Shown in pieces: positions 9,203 through 32,454 of a stretch of DNA of 34,963 bases. The number at the start of each line of letters is the position of its first letter. The stretch's first letter is position 1. The notes under the pieces are model-generated. The model did no database searches, was not told the DNA's origin, and saw nothing but the letters and a program-made list of their open reading frames with translations. The stretch covers positions 1 to 34,963 of the forward strand of contig JAKOQD010000092.1 of NCBI GenBank assembly GCA_029778515.1, given 5' to 3'. This DNA is from Actinomycetes bacterium. GTDB taxonomy: Bacteria; Actinomycetota; Actinomycetes; Propionibacteriales; Propionibacteriaceae. The position numbers and the translations under genes were made by a program.

Positions 9203-9297
9203 CTCACTCCCCTGTGCGATCCCGTGCATGGAACTTCGATGATCCCATGTGGCTCCGGACCGCGCGGCGAAAACCTCCCACTGTTCACATCCATCCA

Positions 9298-9312
9298 GGT
9301 GGCGACGCCACC
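9298..9312. promoter_or_regulatory. Perfect 15-nt palindrome in the GH3-thioesterase divergent region
   Basis: GGTGGCG-A-CGCCACC is perfectly symmetric about one central base. It lies 96 nt upstream of the GH3 start and 48 nt upstream of the thioesterase start, just before TAGCCT (9323-9328), a candidate -10 for the thioesterase gene. It may be an operator; the protein is unknown. Confidence 0.4.
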
Positions 9313-9359
9313 CCGCTACCCATAGCCTGAGTTCAAACCGGCAATGGCAAGGGACCAAC

Positions 9360-9803
9360 ATGGATCAAGACGTTGAGCGGCGCCATCCGCGCGGTCCGCT
9401 GGTGCTGCGCACCTTGGCCATGCCCAGGGACACCAACCCTCGCGGCGACATCTTCGGCGGCTGGATCCTCTCGCAGATGGACATAGCGGCCGGCATCATG
9501 GCCGCCGAAATCGCCCAGGGACGAGTGGTCACCGTGACCGTCACCGATGTGGTGTTCCACCAGCCGGTCGCGGTCGGCGACACGATCTGCGTCCACGCCG
9601 AACTGCTCAAGGTCGGACGCAGCTCGCTGGACCTCAAGCTCGAGGTCTGGGCCCGCGGCCTGGTCGCGATCTATGAGGAGGAACGCGAACTCGTCGCCGA
9701 GGGCGTCTTCCGCTACGTGGCCGTCGACGAGGACGGGCGTCCGCGCCCCGTCGCCGACAACCCGGCCTTCTTCACCAGGCCGACGAGCGAACCCAACGAA
9801 TAG
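9360..9803 (+). CDS. yciA: Acyl-CoA thioesterase, YciA-like hotdog protein
   Basis: A 147-residue single hotdog-domain enzyme that hydrolyses acyl-CoA to free acid and CoA in the cytosol. It aligns from memory along its length with YciA: PLVLRTLAMPRDTNPRGDIF, GGWILSQMDIAAGIMA with the catalytic Asp, GRVVTVTVTDVVFHQPVAVG, and FRYVAVDEDGRPRP near the end. Start ATG 9360 follows AAGGGA with 6 nt spacing. Its stop (TAG 9801-9803) directly abuts the stop of the convergent activase gene (9804), leaving no space for a terminator. The usual substrate range is broad. Confidence 0.92.
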   Translation: MDQDVERRHPRGPLVLRTLAMPRDTNPRGDIFGGWILSQMDIAAGIMAAEIAQGRVVTVTVTDVVFHQPVAVGDTICVHAELLKVGRSSLDLKLEVWARGLVAIYEEERELVAEGVFRYVAVDEDGRPRPVADNPAFFTRPTSEPNE

Positions 9804-12800
9804 TCAGACCAGATCCCAGACGTCCGCGGGCGAGACCGGCGCCGTACCGAGCTGCGGCTCCCCAAGCCCGACCGAATCAGCGCGCCCGATGGGCTGCTCG
9901 GCGTGATGCCGCTTGTGCGCGGTGGCGACCAGGAGCTTGATCCGGTTGAGCTGGTTGGTCTCCGAGGCGCCCGGGTCGTAGTCGACCGCGACGATGTTCG
10001 CCTCCGGGTGCAGTCGCCGCAGTTCGGCGAACATCCCCTTCCCGACCACATGGTTAGGCAGGCAGGCGAACGGCTGGGCGCAGATGATGTTTGGCGCGCC
10101 GATTTCGATCAGCTCGACCATCTCCGCGGTCAGCAGCCAGCCCTCGCCCGCCCGGGTGCCGAGCGAGATCACCCCGTCCGCCTTCTTGGCCAGATCGCTC
10201 ATTCGCGGCGGCACGTCGAACTTGCCGGTCTTCGCCAACGCCTGCGCCACCGGCTGCTGGTACTTCTCGATCAGCCACGTCGCCAGCTTCTTCACGTGGT
10301 GCGACTTGCGACCGATGCCGAGGGTCTCCCACTGGTACTGCGCCGAGTACAGCGGCATCAGGAAGAACTGCAGAATGCCGGGAATGACCGCCTCGCAGTC
10401 CTCGGCCTCGATCACATCCACCACGTGGTTGTTCGCGTCCGGGTGGAACTTCACCAGGATCTCCCCCACCACGCCGACGCGCGGCTTGCGCGGAACCTCA
10501 CGCAGCGGCAGTTCGTCGAACTCCCGCACCAGCCTACGAATCAACGCGGTGTACCCAACGCTGCGCCCCAGCGTCGCCGAGTAGCCCGAGTGCTGCAGGA
10601 ACTCCTGGCAGATCCGGTCCCAGCGGTCATAGAGCGCCTTGGCCGAACCCGGCACCACTTCATAGGGCCGGACGCGAAGCAGCACCGTCTGCATCAGGTC
10701 ACCCAGCACCAGCGCCTGTAGTGCCGGATGGATCAGTCCCGGCGTGATCTTGAAGCCGGGATTCGCCTCCAGGCCCTGCACGCTGATGGCCAGCACCGGC
10801 ACCTGCGGGTAGCCCGCGTCGGCAAGGGCCTTGCGTAGTAGTCCAACGTAGTTCGTTGCACGACACATCCCGCCGGTCTGGGTGATCGCCACCGAGGTGC
10901 GGTCCGGGTCAGCCTCGCCGCTGCGGATCTTGTTCACCAGTTGGCCGACCACCATGATCGCTGGGAAGCAGGCGTCGTTGTTCACATACTTGAGCCCGAC
11001 TTCCACGTCGTCGCTGCTGGCCCGCTCCAGCAACTTCATGTTCAGTCCGACCTTGCCGAACACCGGCATCAGCAGCCGGAAGTGCATCGGCGCCATCTGC
11101 GGGGCGTAGATCGTATGGGTGTCGCGGGCGTTCTCGTCGAACAGCCGCCGCTCCCCCAGCGGTCCGAACGTGCTCACCGTGGCCGAGCCGCGGCGCTCGG
11201 CCGCCGCCGCCTTCATCGACCGCAGCCGGATCGTCGCCGCGCCGAGGTTCGACACCTCATCGATCTTGAGCAGCGTGTAGGCCTCGCCGGCCTGCTCCAG
11301 GATCTCCTGCACCTGGTCGGTGGTGATCGCGTCCACCCCGCAGCCGAAGGAGTTGAGCTGCACCAGGTGCAGGTCGGGCTGCTTCGCGACCACCGCCGCC
11401 GACTCGTACAGCCGGGTGTGGTAGGCCCATTGGTCGCGCACGCGGATCGGCCGGGCCAGGGCCGTCGCGGACGGTTCGACGACCGCGTCCTCGGTCAGTA
11501 CGGCCATGCCCAAGCCGTTGATCAGGCTGGGGATGCCATGGTTGATCTCCGGGTCGACGTGGTACGGCCGGCCGGCCAGCACGATGCCCTTGACGCCGTG
11601 GGCGGTCATGTACTCCAGTGCACGGCGTCCCTCGGCCCGAATGTCGGCCTTGGCGTTCGCGTCCTCGATGAACCCCGCCTCGACCGCAGCCGTGGCCTCG
11701 GCCAGGGTGACGTCCCAGTCGGCGAACACCTCGACCAGCCGCTTGGCCAGCTTCTCGGGGTTGTCCAGGTTCAGGAACGGGCTGAGGTAGCGGACGCCCG
11801 GCTCCTGCAGCCGCACCAGATTGCGCTGCAGCACCTGCGGGTAGAACGCGACCACTGGGCAGTTGAAATGGTTGTCCGCCCCCTTGACCTCCTTGGCCTC
11901 GAGCGGGACGCACGGGTAGAAGATCGTGTTGATGCCCCGGTCGAGCAGGCTCTCGATGTGGCCGTGCGCGATCTTGGCCGGGTAGCAGGCGTTCTCGGCC
12001 GGAATCGACTCCATCCCGCGCTCGAACACCTCGTGGCTGGACCGCCCCGAAAGGGTCACCCGGAAGCCGAGCCGGGTCAGGATGGTGAACCACAGCGGGT
12101 AGTTCTCGTACATGTTCAGCACCCGCGGAATCCCGATATCGCCGCGAAATGCCAAGTCAGCAGTCAGTCGCCGGTAGCCGAACATGCGCCGGTACTTGTA
12201 GTCATAGAGGTTCGGCAACTCGGACTTCTTCGGCACCTTCTCAGTGCTCGCACCGCGCTCGCAGCGGTTGCCAGAGACATGCCGGGTGCCATCGCCGAAG
12301 GTGGAAATGGTCAGCTGGCAGTGGTTCTGGCAGAGCCGGCAGGTGTCCAGATGCGTGTCCACGCGGAACTCGTCCAGTTCATCGAGGCCGAGCACCTGCG
12401 AGCGTTCGCCGTCCGACCAATTGCGCTGGGCGGTCAGAGCCGCACCGTAGGCGCCCATCAGGCCGGCGATGTCCGGACGGATCACCTGGGCGCCGGTCTG
12501 CAGTTCGAAGGCCCGCAGCACCGCGTCGTTCAGGAAGGTACCGCCCTGCACCACCACCAACTCGCCGAGCTGGGACGCGTCCTTGAGCTTGATCACCTTG
12601 TACAGCGCGTTGCGCACCACCGAGTAGGAGAGCCCGGCAGCGATGTCGCCGACCGCCGCACCCTCACGCTGCGCCTGCTTGACCGACGAGTTCATGAAGA
12701 CCGTGCAGCGGGTGCCCAGGTCGACCGGCGCGGATGACTCCAGCGCCATGCTGGCGAAGGCGGCGACATCGGTGTCCATGGACGCGGCGAACGTCTGCAG

Positions 12801-14147
12801 GAACGAGCCGCAGCCGGACGAACAGGCTTCGTTGACGGCGATGGAGTCGACAGCACCGTTGCGGATGCGCAGGTACTTCATGTCCTGGCCGCCGATGTCG
12901 ATCACGGAAGTCACCCCGGGCGCGATCCGCTCCGCAGCCCGGTAGTGGGCCATCGTCTCGATCTCACCGTCGTCGAGGCGCAGCGCGGCCCGCACCAGGC
13001 CTTCGCCGTAGCCGGTCACGCAGGCGCGAGCCAGGTAGGCGTCCGCTGGAAGCGACGTGAGCACGGTCCGCAGGATGCTGAGCGCCACCCCGACCGGGTC
13101 GTTGCTGCCCTGGTAGTGCGAGAACACGAGTTCACCCGACGCGGTCAGCACCACCGCCTTGACCGTCGTTGACCCTGCGTCGATGCCGAGGAACATCGGC
13201 CCGGACGCCGCGCTGAGGTCGCCTCTCGCGATCGTCTCGCTGCCGTGCCGGACGTCGAACTCGTCGCGTTCGGCCTGGTCCTTGAACAGCGGACGCATCC
13301 GCGTGCTGGCGAGTGGGATCAGGGTGCGTTCGCGAAGCCGTCCGATCAGGTCCTCGATGGCCACACCGGAGCCCGAGCCGGTCAGCAGCGCCGCCCCGAT
13401 GGCGACGTAGAGGTGCGCCTCGTCCGGCGTGGTGAACGAGTCGACCTGAGTTGCGAGCGCGCGCTCGTACGCACGCCGGAGTTGCGGCAGGAAGTGCAAC
13501 GGTCCACCGAGGAAGACCAAGTTGCCGCGAATCGGATGACCGCAGGCCAGGCCGGCGATCGTCTGGGTGGCGACCGCGGCGAACACGGATGCGGCCAGGT
13601 CGGTGTGGGCCGCGCCCTGGTTCAGCAGCGGCTGCAGATCGGACTTGGCGAACACGCCGCAGCGGGAGGCGATCGGGTAGAGGTGCTTGTGCTTGGCTGC
13701 GAGGTCGTCCAGTCCGCCGGCATCGGTGTGCAGGAGCGTGGCCATCTGGTCGATGAAGGCACCGGTGCCGCCGGCGCAGGTGCCGTTCATCCGCTGCTCG
13801 ACCACCGGCCGCAGAAAGGTGATCTTCGCGTCCTCACCGCCGAGTTCGATTACCACATCGGCGTCCGGAATGAAGCGCTCGATGGCCGCGGTGCTGGCGA
13901 TGACCTCCTGCACGAACTCGACGCCCAACAGGTCGGCCACCCCCAGACCAGCGGAGCCGGTCACCGCGCAGCGGAACTGCTGCCCTGGGTATCGCTGCGC
14001 GACGTCAGCCAGGAGGGTCCGCAGTGCGCCGCGCGCGTCCGCGTTGTGGCGACGGTAGGCGCTGAACCGAACCGTACCGGCGTTGAGCACGACGGCCTTG
14101 ACCGTGGTCGACCCGATATCGAGTCCGAGCGCGAACTGCTGGGGCAT
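9804..14147 (-). CDS. Double acyl-CoA dehydratase activase fused to reductase-like domains
   Basis: A 1447-residue protein from ATG 14147 (GGAGGG just upstream). It has two BadF/BcrA/HgdC-type ASKHA ATPase domains in tandem (about 1-260 and 318-575), each beginning GxDxGSTTVKAVV. Each has the cysteine pair that, between two subunits, holds the activase [4Fe-4S] cluster: Cys124 (CAGGTGAF) with Cys163 (SRCGVF), and Cys442 (CSSGCGSF) with Cys481 (TRCTVF). Both pairs are 39 residues apart, as in HgdC. A cysteine group follows (603, 606, 610, 629), then the DUF2229 region (RVLNMYENYPLWF, IPAENACYPAKIAHGH), and a C-terminal part with FGCGVDA, NNDACFPAIM and GGMCRATNY, resembling HgdB/HgdC partner reductases. 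Family members are annotated as activase-related; the reaction is not established. I infer ATP-driven, low-potential electron transfer to a cluster in the same chain, in anaerobic conditions. It diverges from a tetR gene. Confidence 0.93.
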   Translation of the reverse strand: MPQQFALGLDIGSTTVKAVVLNAGTVRFSAYRRHNADARGALRTLLADVAQRYPGQQFRCAVTGSAGLGVADLLGVEFVQEVIASTAAIERFIPDADVVIELGGEDAKITFLRPVVEQRMNGTCAGGTGAFIDQMATLLHTDAGGLDDLAAKHKHLYPIASRCGVFAKSDLQPLLNQGAAHTDLAASVFAAVATQTIAGLACGHPIRGNLVFLGGPLHFLPQLRRAYERALATQVDSFTTPDEAHLYVAIGAALLTGSGSGVAIEDLIGRLRERTLIPLASTRMRPLFKDQAERDEFDVRHGSETIARGDLSAASGPMFLGIDAGSTTVKAVVLTASGELVFSHYQGSNDPVGVALSILRTVLTSLPADAYLARACVTGYGEGLVRAALRLDDGEIETMAHYRAAERIAPGVTSVIDIGGQDMKYLRIRNGAVDSIAVNEACSSGCGSFLQTFAASMDTDVAAFASMALESSAPVDLGTRCTVFMNSSVKQAQREGAAVGDIAAGLSYSVVRNALYKVIKLKDASQLGELVVVQGGTFLNDAVLRAFELQTGAQVIRPDIAGLMGAYGAALTAQRNWSDGERSQVLGLDELDEFRVDTHLDTCRLCQNHCQLTISTFGDGTRHVSGNRCERGASTEKVPKKSELPNLYDYKYRRMFGYRRLTADLAFRGDIGIPRVLNMYENYPLWFTILTRLGFRVTLSGRSSHEVFERGMESIPAENACYPAKIAHGHIESLLDRGINTIFYPCVPLEAKEVKGADNHFNCPVVAFYPQVLQRNLVRLQEPGVRYLSPFLNLDNPEKLAKRLVEVFADWDVTLAEATAAVEAGFIEDANAKADIRAEGRRALEYMTAHGVKGIVLAGRPYHVDPEINHGIPSLINGLGMAVLTEDAVVEPSATALARPIRVRDQWAYHTRLYESAAVVAKQPDLHLVQLNSFGCGVDAITTDQVQEILEQAGEAYTLLKIDEVSNLGAATIRLRSMKAAAAERRGSATVSTFGPLGERRLFDENARDTHTIYAPQMAPMHFRLLMPVFGKVGLNMKLLERASSDDVEVGLKYVNNDACFPAIMVVGQLVNKIRSGEADPDRTSVAITQTGGMCRATNYVGLLRKALADAGYPQVPVLAISVQGLEANPGFKITPGLIHPALQALVLGDLMQTVLLRVRPYEVVPGSAKALYDRWDRICQEFLQHSGYSATLGRSVGYTALIRRLVREFDELPLREVPRKPRVGVVGEILVKFHPDANNHVVDVIEAEDCEAVIPGILQFFLMPLYSAQYQWETLGIGRKSHHVKKLATWLIEKYQQPVAQALAKTGKFDVPPRMSDLAKKADGVISLGTRAGEGWLLTAEMVELIEIGAPNIICAQPFACLPNHVVGKGMFAELRRLHPEANIVAVDYDPGASETNQLNRIKLLVATAHKRHHAEQPIGRADSVGLGEPQLGTAPVSPADVWDLV

Positions 14148-14159
14148 CGGCCCTCCAAT

Positions 14160-14175
14160 CAGAACGATCGTTCTG
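14160..14175. promoter_or_regulatory. TetR operator candidate, copy 1
   Basis: CAGAACGATCGTTCTG is a perfect 16-bp palindrome 12 nt upstream of the activase start codon, partly against its ribosome-binding site. An identical copy lies at 14193-14208. The position between the activase gene and the divergent tetR gene makes it the likely binding site of that regulator. Confidence 0.8.
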
Positions 14176-14192
14176 CTCGTGGGCGAGCCTAG

Positions 14193-14208
14193 CAGAACGA
14201 TCGTTCTG
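14193..14208. promoter_or_regulatory. TetR operator candidate, copy 2
   Basis: This is a second identical CAGAACGATCGTTCTG; here the symmetry extends one pair further each side (14192-14209). The centres of the two copies are 33 bp apart, about three helical turns, so two dimers would sit on the same DNA face. Confidence 0.8.
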
Positions 14209-14245
14209 CATTCTGGCCATGGCCGAATCGTGAGCGGCGCGGCAG

Positions 14246-14251
14246 TACCCT
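14246..14251 (+). promoter_or_regulatory. Candidate -10 element of tetR
   Basis: TACCCT fits the TANNNT -10 pattern and ends 7 nt before GTG 14259. There is no ribosome-binding sequence in front of that GTG, so a leaderless transcript is likely. No convincing -35 is visible. Confidence 0.45.
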
Positions 14252-14258
14252 GCAGATT

Positions 14259-14840
14259 GTGGAGAACGTGCCCGCGCCCGCGCGCGACGCCCGCGAGGCA
14301 ATTATCCGGGCCACTATCGATCTGATCCGGCACCAGGGTGTCGCCGGCACTTCGATCTCCGACATCGTCGCCCGCTCGAAGACGTCCGCGGGGGCCATCT
14401 ACCACCACTTCGGCAACAAGGAGCGGTTGATCCTCGAGGTCGGTCAGAGCATCCTGGCCAAGCCGATGGAAATGGTGCTTCGGACCAGTCCGGAACTGTC
14501 GCCGACGGAGCTCTTCCGGGCCGCCCTCGCGCAGATGGCGCGCGACGAAACCACCCCTGAACTGCTCCTGCAGATCTGGGCTGGGGCGAAGTCGGACGCG
14601 AAGCTGGGCCGCCTGATCCATTCCCAAGCGATGGTGGCCCGGAGCGCCGTTCGCACCTTCATGGCGAACTGGTGTGCCGAGCATTCGTCGGACACCGACC
14701 CGGACGATCTGGTCGACCTGATCATGGGCCTCGTGGCCGGCTACGCCGCACTTCGCGCCATGTCGGTCAACCGTGATCCGGAGGCCTACGGCGAGCTGGG
14801 TAGCCGACTGATCGCACAGGCCCTGGCTACCGGCCTCTGA
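14259..14840 (+). CDS. TetR-family transcriptional regulator
   Basis: A 193-residue regulator. The N-terminal helix-turn-helix region runs from DAREAIIRATIDLIRHQGVA through TSISDIVARSKTSAGAIYHH to FGNKERLIL (about 8-55), the TetR signature. The C-terminal helical ligand domain includes LRTSPELSPTELFRAALAQM and LVDLIMGLVAGYAALRAM. The first start is GTG 14259; GTG 14268 is an alternative. It is divergent from the activase gene, with two identical palindromes between, so autorepression and repression of the activase gene are expected. It is followed after 13 nt by a short-chain dehydrogenase. The inducer is unknown; an acyl-CoA or free acid would suit the context. Confidence 0.93.
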   Translation: MENVPAPARDAREAIIRATIDLIRHQGVAGTSISDIVARSKTSAGAIYHHFGNKERLILEVGQSILAKPMEMVLRTSPELSPTELFRAALAQMARDETTPELLLQIWAGAKSDAKLGRLIHSQAMVARSAVRTFMANWCAEHSSDTDPDDLVDLIMGLVAGYAALRAMSVNRDPEAYGELGSRLIAQALATGL

Positions 14841-29884: not shown

Positions 29885-31273
29885 ATGACTCTCCTGTCGT
29901 CCGTGTCACCATCGACGCTGCGCTCCGGCCAGCTCAGCACTGCGCTGCTCACCGACCACTACGAGCTGACCATGGTTCGGGCCGCATTGCGTTCCAAAAC
30001 CGCACTTCGCAGGAGCGTGTTCGAACTCTTCGCCCGCCGACTGCCCGAGGGGCGCCGCTACGGAATCGTGGCCGGTGCCGGCCGCGCGATGGACGCGATC
30101 CAGGCCTTCCGCTTCGACGAGGAGCAGCTGAACTTCCTGCTTGAGCAGAACGTCATCGACACCGACCTGGCCGACTGGCTCAGCCGCTACAAGTTCAAGG
30201 GCAACATCTGGGGCTACCCGGACGGCGAGGCCTACTTCCCCGGCTCTCCCCTGCTGATCGTCGAAGGCACCTTCGCCGAAGCGGTCATCCTGGAGACCGT
30301 GCTGCTGAGCATCTACAACTACGACTGCGCGGTCGCGTCCGCCGCCTCGCGGATGACCGCGATGGCCGGCGACCGGCCCTGCATCGAGATGGGCTCCCGG
30401 CGCACCAACGAGTCTGCCGCGGTGGCCGCCGCCCGCGCCGCCTACATCGCGGGCTTCCAGGCCACCTCGAACCTCGAAGCTGGACGCACCTACGGAATTC
30501 CGACCACCGGCACGGCCGCGCACTCGTTCACCCTCCTGCACGACACCGAAGAGGACGCGTTCAAGGCGCAGCTGAAGACGCTGGGCAAGGGCACCACGCT
30601 GCTGGTGGACACCTACGACATCGAAGAGGCCGTACGCACCGGCGTCCGCCTCAGCAAAGGCAAGCTGGGCGCGATCCGGCTCGACTCCGGCGACCTCGCC
30701 GAGCAGGCAGCGGACGTGCGCAAGCTGCTGGACTCCCTGGGCGCCGAGAAGACGAAGATCATCGTCACTTCTGACCTGGACGAGTTCCAGATCGCCGCGC
30801 TACGCAGCGCCCCGGTGGACGGTTACGGGGTCGGCACCTCGCTGGTCACCGGTTCGGGGGCGCCGACCTGCGGCTTCGTCTACAAGTTGGTGTCGAGAGC
30901 CACGTCCGAAGCGAAGGACGCCGAACTGCTGCCGGTGGCGAAGAAGAGCGTCAACAAGGGGTCGGTGGGCGGACGAAAGTTCGCGCTGCGCCGGCTGAAC
31001 GCGGCGGGCCGGGCGGAGGCGGAGGTGATCGGTATCGGCACCCCGCCGGTCAACGACGGCAACGACCGTCCGCTGCTGGTGCAGCTGATGGCCAAGGGCA
31101 AGCCGATCGCTCGCGAACCGCTCGAAGCCGCCCGGGAGCGGCACACCAGGGTGCGGGCCGAACTGCCGCTCGCCGCGCACAAGATGAGCAAGGGCGACCC
31201 AGCGCTGCCCACCATCCTGCTCGATGAGGTCGGCGAGGTGACCGACAACCCTTACGCGGCGGTTAAGCGATGA
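29885..31273 (+). CDS. pncB: Nicotinate phosphoribosyltransferase
   Basis: A 462-residue enzyme converting nicotinate and PRPP to nicotinate mononucleotide in NAD salvage. Motifs: LLTDHYELTMVRAAL, SVFELFARRLPEGRRYGIVA, IEMGSRRTNESAAVAAARAA, YGIPTTGTAAHSFTLLHD with the catalytic His, VDTYDIEEAVRTGV, IRLDSGDLAEQA, GYGVGTSLVTG and GFVYKLV. Mycobacterial type in length and sequence. Its stop overlaps the start of the nicotinamidase gene (ATGA), so the enzymes that make and use nicotinate are coupled. Confidence 0.97.
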   Translation: MTLLSSVSPSTLRSGQLSTALLTDHYELTMVRAALRSKTALRRSVFELFARRLPEGRRYGIVAGAGRAMDAIQAFRFDEEQLNFLLEQNVIDTDLADWLSRYKFKGNIWGYPDGEAYFPGSPLLIVEGTFAEAVILETVLLSIYNYDCAVASAASRMTAMAGDRPCIEMGSRRTNESAAVAAARAAYIAGFQATSNLEAGRTYGIPTTGTAAHSFTLLHDTEEDAFKAQLKTLGKGTTLLVDTYDIEEAVRTGVRLSKGKLGAIRLDSGDLAEQAADVRKLLDSLGAEKTKIIVTSDLDEFQIAALRSAPVDGYGVGTSLVTGSGAPTCGFVYKLVSRATSEAKDAELLPVAKKSVNKGSVGGRKFALRRLNAAGRAEAEVIGIGTPPVNDGNDRPLLVQLMAKGKPIAREPLEAARERHTRVRAELPLAAHKMSKGDPALPTILLDEVGEVTDNPYAAVKR

Positions 31274-32454
31274 GCACCGCGCTGATCGTCGTCGACGTTC
31301 AGAACGACTTCTGCGAAGGTGGTTCGCTGGCGGTGACCGGCGGGGCTGCGGTGGCTGCTCGGATCGGTGCTCTGTTAGCTGGCGAGCACGGTTACGACCA
31401 TGTCGTCGCTACCCGCGATCACCACATCGACCCGGGACCGCACTTCTCCGCGACACCCGACTACGTGGACTCCTGGCCGGTGCACTGCGTGGCCGGGACA
31501 CCCGGCGCCGAGCTGCATTCGGCGCTGCTCGGCTCAACTCCGGACCGCCGTCATCCCGGCGCAGGCCGGGATCTCGGGTCGACCTTGGAAGCGGTCTTCG
31601 ACAAGGGCGAATACGCCGCGGCCTACTCCGGTTTCGAGGGTAGGGCGGACGGGGTCGCGCTCGCCGACTGGCTGGTGGACCGCAGCGTGACCAAGGTGGT
31701 CGTCTGCGGCATCGCGACCGACCACTGCGTCCGCGCGACCGCGCTGGACGCCGTCCGCGACGGCTTCGCTACCACCGTGCTGCTCGACTACACCGCTGCG
31801 GTGAGCCCGGAGCGCCTGCCCTCGGTGCTGGCCGAGTTCGAGGCGGCCGGTGTGCGGCTGGTTCGGGGCGAGCCGGACGGTACCCGCCGCGTGGCATGGT
31901 CGGAAGGAGTCTGGACCAACCCGCCCGCCGCCGTGACAACCGCCGAGAAGGCGCTTGAAGTGACCGCGGTGGAAGGCTCGGACGCCTGGCGGCACACCGC
32001 TTACGGATTCGTCCACGACACCGAGCACGCGCTGCTGGCCCCGCTCGCCGTCGGCGAGGCGGTCGAGGTGGTGCTGCAGACGACGTTCTCGGGGCAGTTC
32101 GACCAGGCTGGCGTGCTGGTGCGCGCCGACGCCGAACACTGGGTGAAGGCCGGGTGCGAGTACGCCGACGGCGCGCTCAACCTGGGTGCGGTGGTGACGC
32201 TGGAGCGTTCGGACTGGTCGGTCGCACCGGTCGATTGGAACGGCCAGGAGATCACCGTCCGGGTGAGCCGGGACGCGGAGTCGCTCACGGTCCGCGCGAA
32301 GGTTGCCGGCGGCGACTTCCGGTTGGTGCGGGTGGCGCCCTTCGTTACCGGCGAGGTGTCCGCAGGGCCCTACGTCTGCGCCCCTACCCGGCCGGACTTC
32401 ACCGTCCGCTTCCTGAGCTGGCGCGTCGTTCCCGGGGACGCGTCCCTGCACTGA
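31270..32454 (+). CDS. pncA: Nicotinamidase fused to a DUF1349 domain
   Basis: A 394-residue fusion. Residues 1-200 are nicotinamidase, which deamidates nicotinamide to nicotinate for PncB. Catalytic Asp9 (VDVQNDF), Lys112 (VFDKGEY) and Cys153 (CGIATDHCVRATALDA) are present, as are the metal ligands Asp50, His52, His58 and His72, aligned with the M. tuberculosis enzyme. Residues around 91-104 (PDRRHPGAGRDLGS) are an insertion of about 15 residues from a dispersed palindromic element. Residues about 208-394 resemble DUF1349, a concanavalin-like fold: WTNPPAAV, YGFVHDTEHALLAPL, FDQAGVLVRADAEHWVKAGC, VRFLSWRVVPGD. The ATG overlaps the pncB stop. Confidence 0.93.
   Translation: MSTALIVVDVQNDFCEGGSLAVTGGAAVAARIGALLAGEHGYDHVVATRDHHIDPGPHFSATPDYVDSWPVHCVAGTPGAELHSALLGSTPDRRHPGAGRDLGSTLEAVFDKGEYAAAYSGFEGRADGVALADWLVDRSVTKVVVCGIATDHCVRATALDAVRDGFATTVLLDYTAAVSPERLPSVLAEFEAAGVRLVRGEPDGTRRVAWSEGVWTNPPAAVTTAEKALEVTAVEGSDAWRHTAYGFVHDTEHALLAPLAVGEAVEVVLQTTFSGQFDQAGVLVRADAEHWVKAGCEYADGALNLGAVVTLERSDWSVAPVDWNGQEITVRVSRDAESLTVRAKVAGGDFRLVRVAPFVTGEVSAGPYVCAPTRPDFTVRFLSWRVVPGDASLH
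31550..31574. repeat. Palindromic dispersed element, copy 2 (inside pncA)
   Basis: GTCATCCCGGCGCAGG then CCGGGATCT; it differs from 21516-21540 (reverse strand) at 2 of 25 bases. The hairpin is ATCCCGGC/GCCGGGAT. Read in frame here as RHPGAGRDL, a peptide often seen from this element in many bacterial genomes. Confidence 0.85.

What the first reader, a model, noticed from the sequence alone, without database searches (positions are those of the whole stretch)
9804..14147. One-polypeptide activase pair plus reductase under its own TetR control
Two complete activase ATPase domains, each with its two cluster cysteines 39 residues apart (124/163 and 442/481, spacing equal to HgdC Cys127/Cys166), are fused to a C-terminal part carrying further cysteines and HgdB-like motifs. 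Canonical activases are single-domain homodimers sharing one [4Fe-4S] cluster. Tandem domains could form that cluster within one chain and pass electrons to the fused reductase. No dehydratase subunits, CoA transferase or carbon pathway genes lie nearby, so the substrate is unknown.
Basis: partly seen in the sequence, partly recalled or inferred. Interest (0 to 1): 0.75.

Follow-up and report, generated by a model that had tools for sequence, protein, structure and literature searches.

The report
Plasmalogen synthase with its repressor
This gene most likely encodes a known one-piece anaerobic enzyme that turns ordinary membrane phospholipids into plasmalogens (vinyl-ether lipids), apparently switched by a neighbouring TetR-type repressor, so it is a well-made example of a recently solved enzyme family rather than a new system.

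Summary
The anatomy in the finding is real. One intact 1447-residue protein (9804-14147, minus strand) carries two activase domains with Cys124/163 and Cys442/481, then two reductase halves. The claim that its substrate is unknown is wrong at family level: size, domain order and cysteines match single-gene PlsA, plasmalogen synthase, whose homologues from Enterococcus, Lactococcus and Bifidobacterium make plasmalogens in E. coli (PMC12838417). A TetR/AcrR gene beside it is also in print for facultative anaerobes (PMC9702350). The window protein groups with Listeria, Enterococcus, Clostridia and other Actinobacteria.

What I saw in no paper I read is the likely operator: two perfect palindromes, AGAACGATCGTTCT, between plsA and the divergent TetR gene. 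The site recurs, with up to 3 mismatches, upstream of plsA in 22 of 28 related loci, including 17 of 17 with an orthologous divergent TetR; shuffles give 0.4 on average.

The main rival is Ger, a homologue that makes saturated alkyl ethers, which sequence alone cannot exclude. No tested PlsA or Ger sequence could be obtained for direct comparison.

The parts
9804..14147 (-). plsA: single-chain plasmalogen synthase (1447 aa)
   Evidence: architecture as in PMC12838417
13377..14135 (-). Act1, activase domain 1 (residues 5-257), cysteines 124 and 163
12420..13196 (-). Act2, activase domain 2 (residues 318-576), cysteines 442, 446, 481
12261..12341 (-). four-cysteine motif CxxCxxxC...C (residues 603-629), possible extra Fe-S ligands
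   Evidence: invariant in 82/82 and 132/132
11148..12146 (-). Red1, reductase half of the BCR/HAD/DCCP fold (residues 668-1000, DUF2229 671-889), cysteines 721, 763, 936
9903..11132 (-). Red2, second reductase half (residues 1006-1415; corresponds to the separate second gene of split members), cysteines 1060, 1095, 1362
   Evidence: hhalign to Red1 over 81 columns, 89%, E 2.3e-6, pairing C721/C1060 and C763/C1095; separate 404-aa gene in Fusobacterium animalis
14152..14156 (-). probable ribosome-binding site GGAGG of plsA
   Evidence: read
14160..14175 (.). candidate operator O1, perfect palindrome CAGAACGATCGTTCTG, 3 bp from the GGAGG
14192..14209 (.). candidate operator O2, perfect palindrome GCAGAACGATCGTTCTGC; core 33 bp from that of O1
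14259..14840 (+). divergent TetR/AcrR-family regulator
   Evidence: TetR_N E 1.1e-14; orthologue in the divergent position in 17 of 30 related loci

Best explanation
The protein is PlsA, a one-chain plasmalogen synthase. Act1 and Act2 hold a [4Fe-4S] cluster between them and use ATP to push electrons to very low potential (inferred from the activase family). The electrons pass to Fe-S clusters in Red1/Red2, which reduce the sn-1 acyl ester carbonyl of a diacyl phospholipid; protonation and loss of water then give the vinyl ether (product shown for homologues in print; the step order is a proposal in print). A divergently transcribed TetR protein binds two palindromes just upstream of the plsA ribosome-binding site and represses plsA when plasmalogens are not wanted, probably in oxic growth (binding and signal inferred).
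For: Architecture and length: against 4,248-4,920 bp single-gene plsA with Act1, Act2, Red1, Red2 in PMC12838417. Split Fusobacterium version, 975 + 404 aa, resembles the two-gene plsA-plsR of C. perfringens. All 15 key cysteines invariant. The tree groups the window with Enterococcus and Listeria, apart from a second clade (support 1.0). Propionibacteriales are listed among carriers, and a TetR/AcrR gene directly upstream is reported for E. faecalis and other facultative anaerobes (PMC9702350). Operator and TetR conservation. No recurring acyl-CoA partner gene beside the relatives.
Against: No biochemically tested PlsA sequence was itself compared; the nearest proxies were Enterococcus raffinosus (50% identity) and Listeria (49%). 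Two activation domains have been proposed in print to mark Ger rather than PlsA (PMC13274423), although the Enterococcus, Listeria, Collinsella and Fusobacterium members also have two. 8 of 30 related loci have at least 500 bp upstream and no upstream TetR hit, and 6 of 28 lack the operator core. Collinsella, a strict anaerobe (recalled), also has a TetR-like gene upstream, against the printed link to facultative anaerobes only. No sigma-70-type promoter match in 14000-14400. No lipid data for this organism were seen.
Confidence: 0.85

Rival explanations
1. It is Ger, glycerol ester reductase: the same machinery, but the product is a saturated alkyl ether rather than a vinyl ether.
For: Ger is a PlsA homologue of similar size (D. 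alkenivorans Ger 159 kDa). PMC13274423 states that sequence alone cannot yet separate the two and links two activation domains to Ger; the window protein has two.
Against: Members of Enterococcus, Listeria, Fusobacterium and Collinsella also show two PF01869 stretches, and PMC12838417 labels Act1 and Act2 in plasmalogen-making enzymes, so domain count does not discriminate. The window groups with the Enterococcus/Listeria clade. TetR pairing matches the plsA report. No Ger sequence could be obtained to place it.
Confidence: 0.1
2. It is a 2-hydroxyacyl-CoA dehydratase or benzoyl-CoA-reductase-like enzyme acting on an unknown CoA ester (the database annotation, and the first reader's frame).
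For: Database names; activase and BCR/HAD folds; a 4HBT thioesterase gene ends next to plsA.
Against: No CoA-pathway gene other than that thioesterase seen in the 16 window ORFs scanned, and none recurring among related loci. The thioesterase has no match at E 1e-5 among the ORFs of the fetched loci (flanks up to 8 kb, 1.5 kb for the closest relatives). Tested homologues act on phospholipids.
Confidence: 0.05

Closest known systems
Single-gene PlsA (E. faecalis K-4, L. cremoris BAA-493, B. longum subsp. suis; PMC12838417)
   Same: One gene of about 4.2-4.9 kb, Act1-Act2-Red1-Red2, conserved cysteines
   Different: Those were tested for product; this one was not.
Two-gene PlsA-PlsR of Clostridium perfringens (Jackson et al. 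2021, seen only as cited)
   Same: Same parts; the split Fusobacterium member found here is 975 + 404 aa
   Different: Here both are one chain
Ger, glycerol ester reductase (T. maritima, D. alkenivorans)
   Same: PlsA homologue, two activation domains, 159 kDa in D. alkenivorans
   Different: Makes saturated alkyl ethers; sequence not available here
Class I benzoyl-CoA reductases BzdNO(PQ), MbdONPQ
   Same: Two different activase subunits plus two related reductase subunits; same folds
   Different: Four separate chains, CoA ester substrate
HgdC/HadI activators with 2-hydroxyacyl-CoA dehydratases
   Same: Activase domains; dehydratase-subunit fold of Red1
   Different: Homodimeric stand-alone activator, 2-hydroxyacyl-CoA substrate (recalled)
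Double-cubane cluster protein DCCP with DCCP-R
   Different: Homodimer with separate reductase; physiological role unclear (PMC11971306)

Membership tests
PlsA (plasmalogen synthase) | Two activase and two reductase/dehydration domains in one (or two) chains of about 1,400 aa in total | tested here: met
   (Red2 rests on a partial profile match to Red1)
PlsA (plasmalogen synthase) | Conserved Fe-S cysteines | tested here: met
   15 cysteines invariant in 82/82 and 132/132
PlsA (plasmalogen synthase) | Groups by sequence with experimentally tested PlsA | tested here: inconclusive
   Only same-genus or same-clade proxies available (E. raffinosus, Listeria)
PlsA (plasmalogen synthase) | TetR/AcrR regulator adjacent in facultative anaerobes | tested here: met
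   also beside the E. raffinosus and Collinsella members
PlsA (plasmalogen synthase) | Product is an sn-1 vinyl ether | not testable with these tools
   needs lipid analysis
Ger (glycerol ester reductase) | Two PF01869 activation domains (proposed mark) | tested here: met
   but also met by Enterococcus, Listeria, Fusobacterium, Collinsella members, so not diagnostic
Ger (glycerol ester reductase) | Product is a saturated alkyl ether; groups with tested Ger | not tested
   no Ger sequence obtained; product needs lipid analysis
HgdC-type activator | Cluster cysteine pair 39 apart in the activase ATPase domain | tested here: met
HgdC-type activator | Stand-alone single-domain homodimer | tested here: not met
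   tandem, fused
2-hydroxyacyl-CoA dehydratase | HGD-D (PF06050) sequence family | tested here: not met
   no PF06050 match for the window protein or pieces; weak, below cut-off, in the Collinsella and P. bifermentans relatives
2-hydroxyacyl-CoA dehydratase | Separate dehydratase subunits | tested here: not met
   single chain; no separate subunit in the 16 window ORFs scanned
Double-cubane cluster enzymes | [8Fe-9S] cluster held by six cysteines | tested here: inconclusive
   seven invariant cysteines in 603-936; DCCP and a BzdN-sized chain are the only Foldseek matches below E 0.001; ligand geometry not examined

The most novel reading that the evidence does not exclude
Red1 with its preceding CxxCxxxC...C motif (seven invariant cysteines: 603, 606, 610, 629, 721, 763, 936) holds an [8Fe-9S] double cubane as in BzdN and DCCP, while Red2 (three cysteines: 1060, 1095, 1362) holds the catalytic [4Fe-4S]-OH2 cluster as in BzdO. 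Plasmalogen synthase would then be a one-chain Birch-type reductase that works on a membrane ester instead of a CoA ester.
Probability: 0.25. Interest if true: 0.6.

Novelty: new member of a known kind. Interest (0 to 1): 0.25.

Why it matters
It removes an apparent orphan: a large family still named 'acyl-CoA dehydratase activase-related protein' or '2-hydroxyacyl-CoA dehydratase' in databases looks like the plasmalogen synthase family. It adds a concrete testable regulatory site for an enzyme whose control by oxygen is only suggested in print. If Red1 does hold a double cubane, it would extend that cluster to a CoA-independent reaction; PMC11971306 (Discussion) names restriction to CoA esters as the current limit of enzymatic Birch reduction.

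Tried and rejected
Operon-based function finding: no recurring acyl-CoA partner. In one search (85 of 86 loci; L005 left out) the commonest neighbour is a rhomboid-like protein in 21 loci, then ABC ATPases in 13, pyruvate kinase-like in 7, and PolA-, CoaE-, GlnRS-, Tgt- and YebC-like proteins in 5-6 each (names are my reading of the printed sequences). Of 77 immediate upstream ORFs in other loci, 3 match TetR_N, 3 TetR_C_8 and 5 LysM (first 25 of 76 families shown).

A CoA-pathway role suggested by the neighbouring thioesterase: no match at E 1e-5 among ORFs of the fetched loci, so dropped.

Sequence search of the C-terminal half against PDB found nothing credible; the link came only through the predicted fold. 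VIA rows mainly cover Red1, so Red2's fold was barely tested.

Fetching tested PlsA and Ger sequences: two protein searches aimed at them were filled mostly by E. avium-type sequences and by spirochaete, Fusobacteriota and delta-type sequences. PF09989 rings in 4 of 14 control genomes, T. maritima and L. lactis among them (also Thermus composti and Deinobacterium chartae), but no sequence is handed out. Papers reporting primary discoveries were not held.

Cysteine convergence: models obtained but no coordinates in the Python box.

Rex control was suggested by a Rex-like site upstream of a 'CoA-substrate-specific enzyme activase' gene in L. oligofermentans (PMC4972977, passages); its membership in this family was not checked and no such claim is made for the window. 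The palindrome search between the TetR and plsA genes of E. raffinosus found only one AT-rich inverted repeat at the TetR start.

Full report
What is there. The minus-strand frame 9804-14147 is open and encodes 1447 residues. Its ATG follows a GGAGG. Pfam finds BcrAD_BadFG twice and DUF2229. Cut out alone, both activase domains pass the Pfam cut-off, and each matches chains of HgdC, HadI, MbdP, MbdQ and DCCP-R by sequence. Cys124/163 and Cys442/481 fall on the matching cysteines of the solved activators. Profile comparison pairs Act1 with Act2 over 247 columns (99.9%, E 2.3e-31), matching C124 with C442 and C163 with C481. A fifth cysteine, Cys446, is also invariant; Act1 and the three activator chains printed have Thr there.

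Conservation. Fifteen cysteines are invariant in 82 of 82 sequences (window plus 81 of 86 loci; the 5 whose longest matching frame is 1,300 aa or less were dropped). They are also invariant in 97 of 97 and 35 of 35 members of two sets (a sample of the listed proteins). I assigned the second set by the search it came from; a midpoint-rooted FastTree tree of 37 then recovered it as a separate clade with support 1.0. The window belongs to the first clade, with other Actinobacteria, Clostridia, Enterococcus, Listeria and two spirochaete loci (48% or more identity), and is 33-37% identical to the second (other spirochaetes, Haliovirga, Hypnocyclicus, delta-proteobacterial and Fibrobacter sequences among those that carry names).

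What it does. In print, homologues of this architecture are plasmalogen synthases. PMC12838417 (abstract, sections 3, 8 and 16, and passages) reports single-gene plsA of 4,248, 4,311 and 4,920 bp from E. faecalis K-4, L. cremoris and B. longum subsp. suis, and the two-gene plsA-plsR of C. perfringens, all giving plasmalogens in E. coli; it labels Act1, Act2, Red1 and Red2. [quoted passage not shown] faecalis and other facultative anaerobes, absent in strict anaerobes. PMC8788747 (passages) gives the proposed mechanism: two sequential electron reductions, protonation and dehydration. The original discovery paper (Jackson et al. 2021) was not held and is known to me only as cited. The split Fusobacterium animalis member, 975 + 404 aa, looks like plsA-plsR.

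The rival. Ger makes saturated alkyl ethers with a homologous enzyme (PMC11150832, passages). PMC13274423 (section 18 and passages) says sequence cannot yet tell Ger from PlsA and proposes two activation domains as a mark of Ger. That mark does not discriminate on the current Pfam model: the Enterococcus, Listeria, Collinsella and Fusobacterium members also have two. I could not obtain a Ger sequence. A motif around Cys1095 differs between the clades in the sequences inspected (QTGG[GM]CRATN in the first, KNC..CRAGQ or close forms in five of the second); whether it tracks the product is untested.

Regulation. Between the plsA start (14147) and the divergent TetR start (14259) lie two perfect palindromes with the core AGAACGATCGTTCT at 14161-14174 and 14194-14207. 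These are the only two matches in the window at up to 2 mismatches (expected 0.13) and at up to 3. I searched the family of the genome that holds L007: 83 of 147 genomes carry a match at E 1e-50 or better; the 30 best-placed loci were fetched. Of these 30, 17 have an orthologous TetR in the divergent position, 2 a TetR in the same direction, 8 no upstream hit (one of these, L103, has a weaker TetR-like hit on the downstream side) and 3 too little flank. In 28 examined upstream regions (L104 and L112 were left out for lack of upstream DNA) the core occurs with up to 3 mismatches in 22, up to 1 in 17, and exactly in 9. It is present in 17 of 17 with the divergent TetR and 5 of 11 others (Fisher p 0.0012; the loci are related, so p is only indicative). 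First-order Markov shuffles give a mean of 0.4 and at most 3. In the rest of these loci (212 kb in all) there was 1 match at up to 3 mismatches. Among 83 other loci, mostly Clostridia, 2 matched; one of them, L007, is the same genome as L097. I saw no description of this operator in the papers I read; literature searches were seen as listings only.

What is not shown. The lipid product, the Fe-S content, cysteine convergence, repressor binding and the signal are all inferred. The host is inferred to be a Propionibacteriaceae member from its best hits that carry a genus name (Propionicimonas, Micropruina, 81-83%).

Verdict. The added value is the conserved repressor-operator unit and, more speculatively, the seven-cysteine Red1 that could hold a double cubane.

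Noticed in passing
L005:7992-11840 (Paraclostridium bifermentans plasmid): A distant 1282-aa relative (about 23% identity) lies beside a Crp/Fnr regulator, an ABC transporter, cupins, hcp and hemerythrin genes; it may belong to a subfamily with another substrate.
   Followed up: partly
window 12810-12812 (residue Cys446): Act2 has an extra invariant cysteine (CSSGC) four residues after Cys442, present in 132 of 132 sequences, where the three activator chains printed have Thr.
   Followed up: partly
window 10851-10880 (residues 1090-1099) and clade II sequences P0264, P0274, P0287, P0352, L004: The stretch around Cys1095 differs between the two clades (QTGGMCRATN type against KNC..CRAGQ or similar); a candidate mark for a product difference.
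   Followed up: partly
genome G013 (L098 and G013:C26:19943-24193): One related genome carries two near-full-length plsA matches, 81% and 68% identical to the window protein.
   Followed up: no
window 9249-9803 (+): A YciA-like (below the NCBIfam cut-off) 4HBT thioesterase gene ends at the base next to the plsA stop, convergent; no match among ORFs of the fetched loci.
   Followed up: partly
window 31270-32454 (+): One frame joins an isochorismatase domain and DUF1349.
   Followed up: no
L057:6980-11206: A Lachnospiraceae member is broken into two frames (326 and 983 aa) with a gap; left as is.
   Followed up: no
L006:7021-7731 (Collinsella aerofaciens): A TetR_C_8 protein sits 11 bases upstream of plsA in an organism I recall as a strict anaerobe, against the printed statement that strict anaerobes lack the regulator.
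   Followed up: partly
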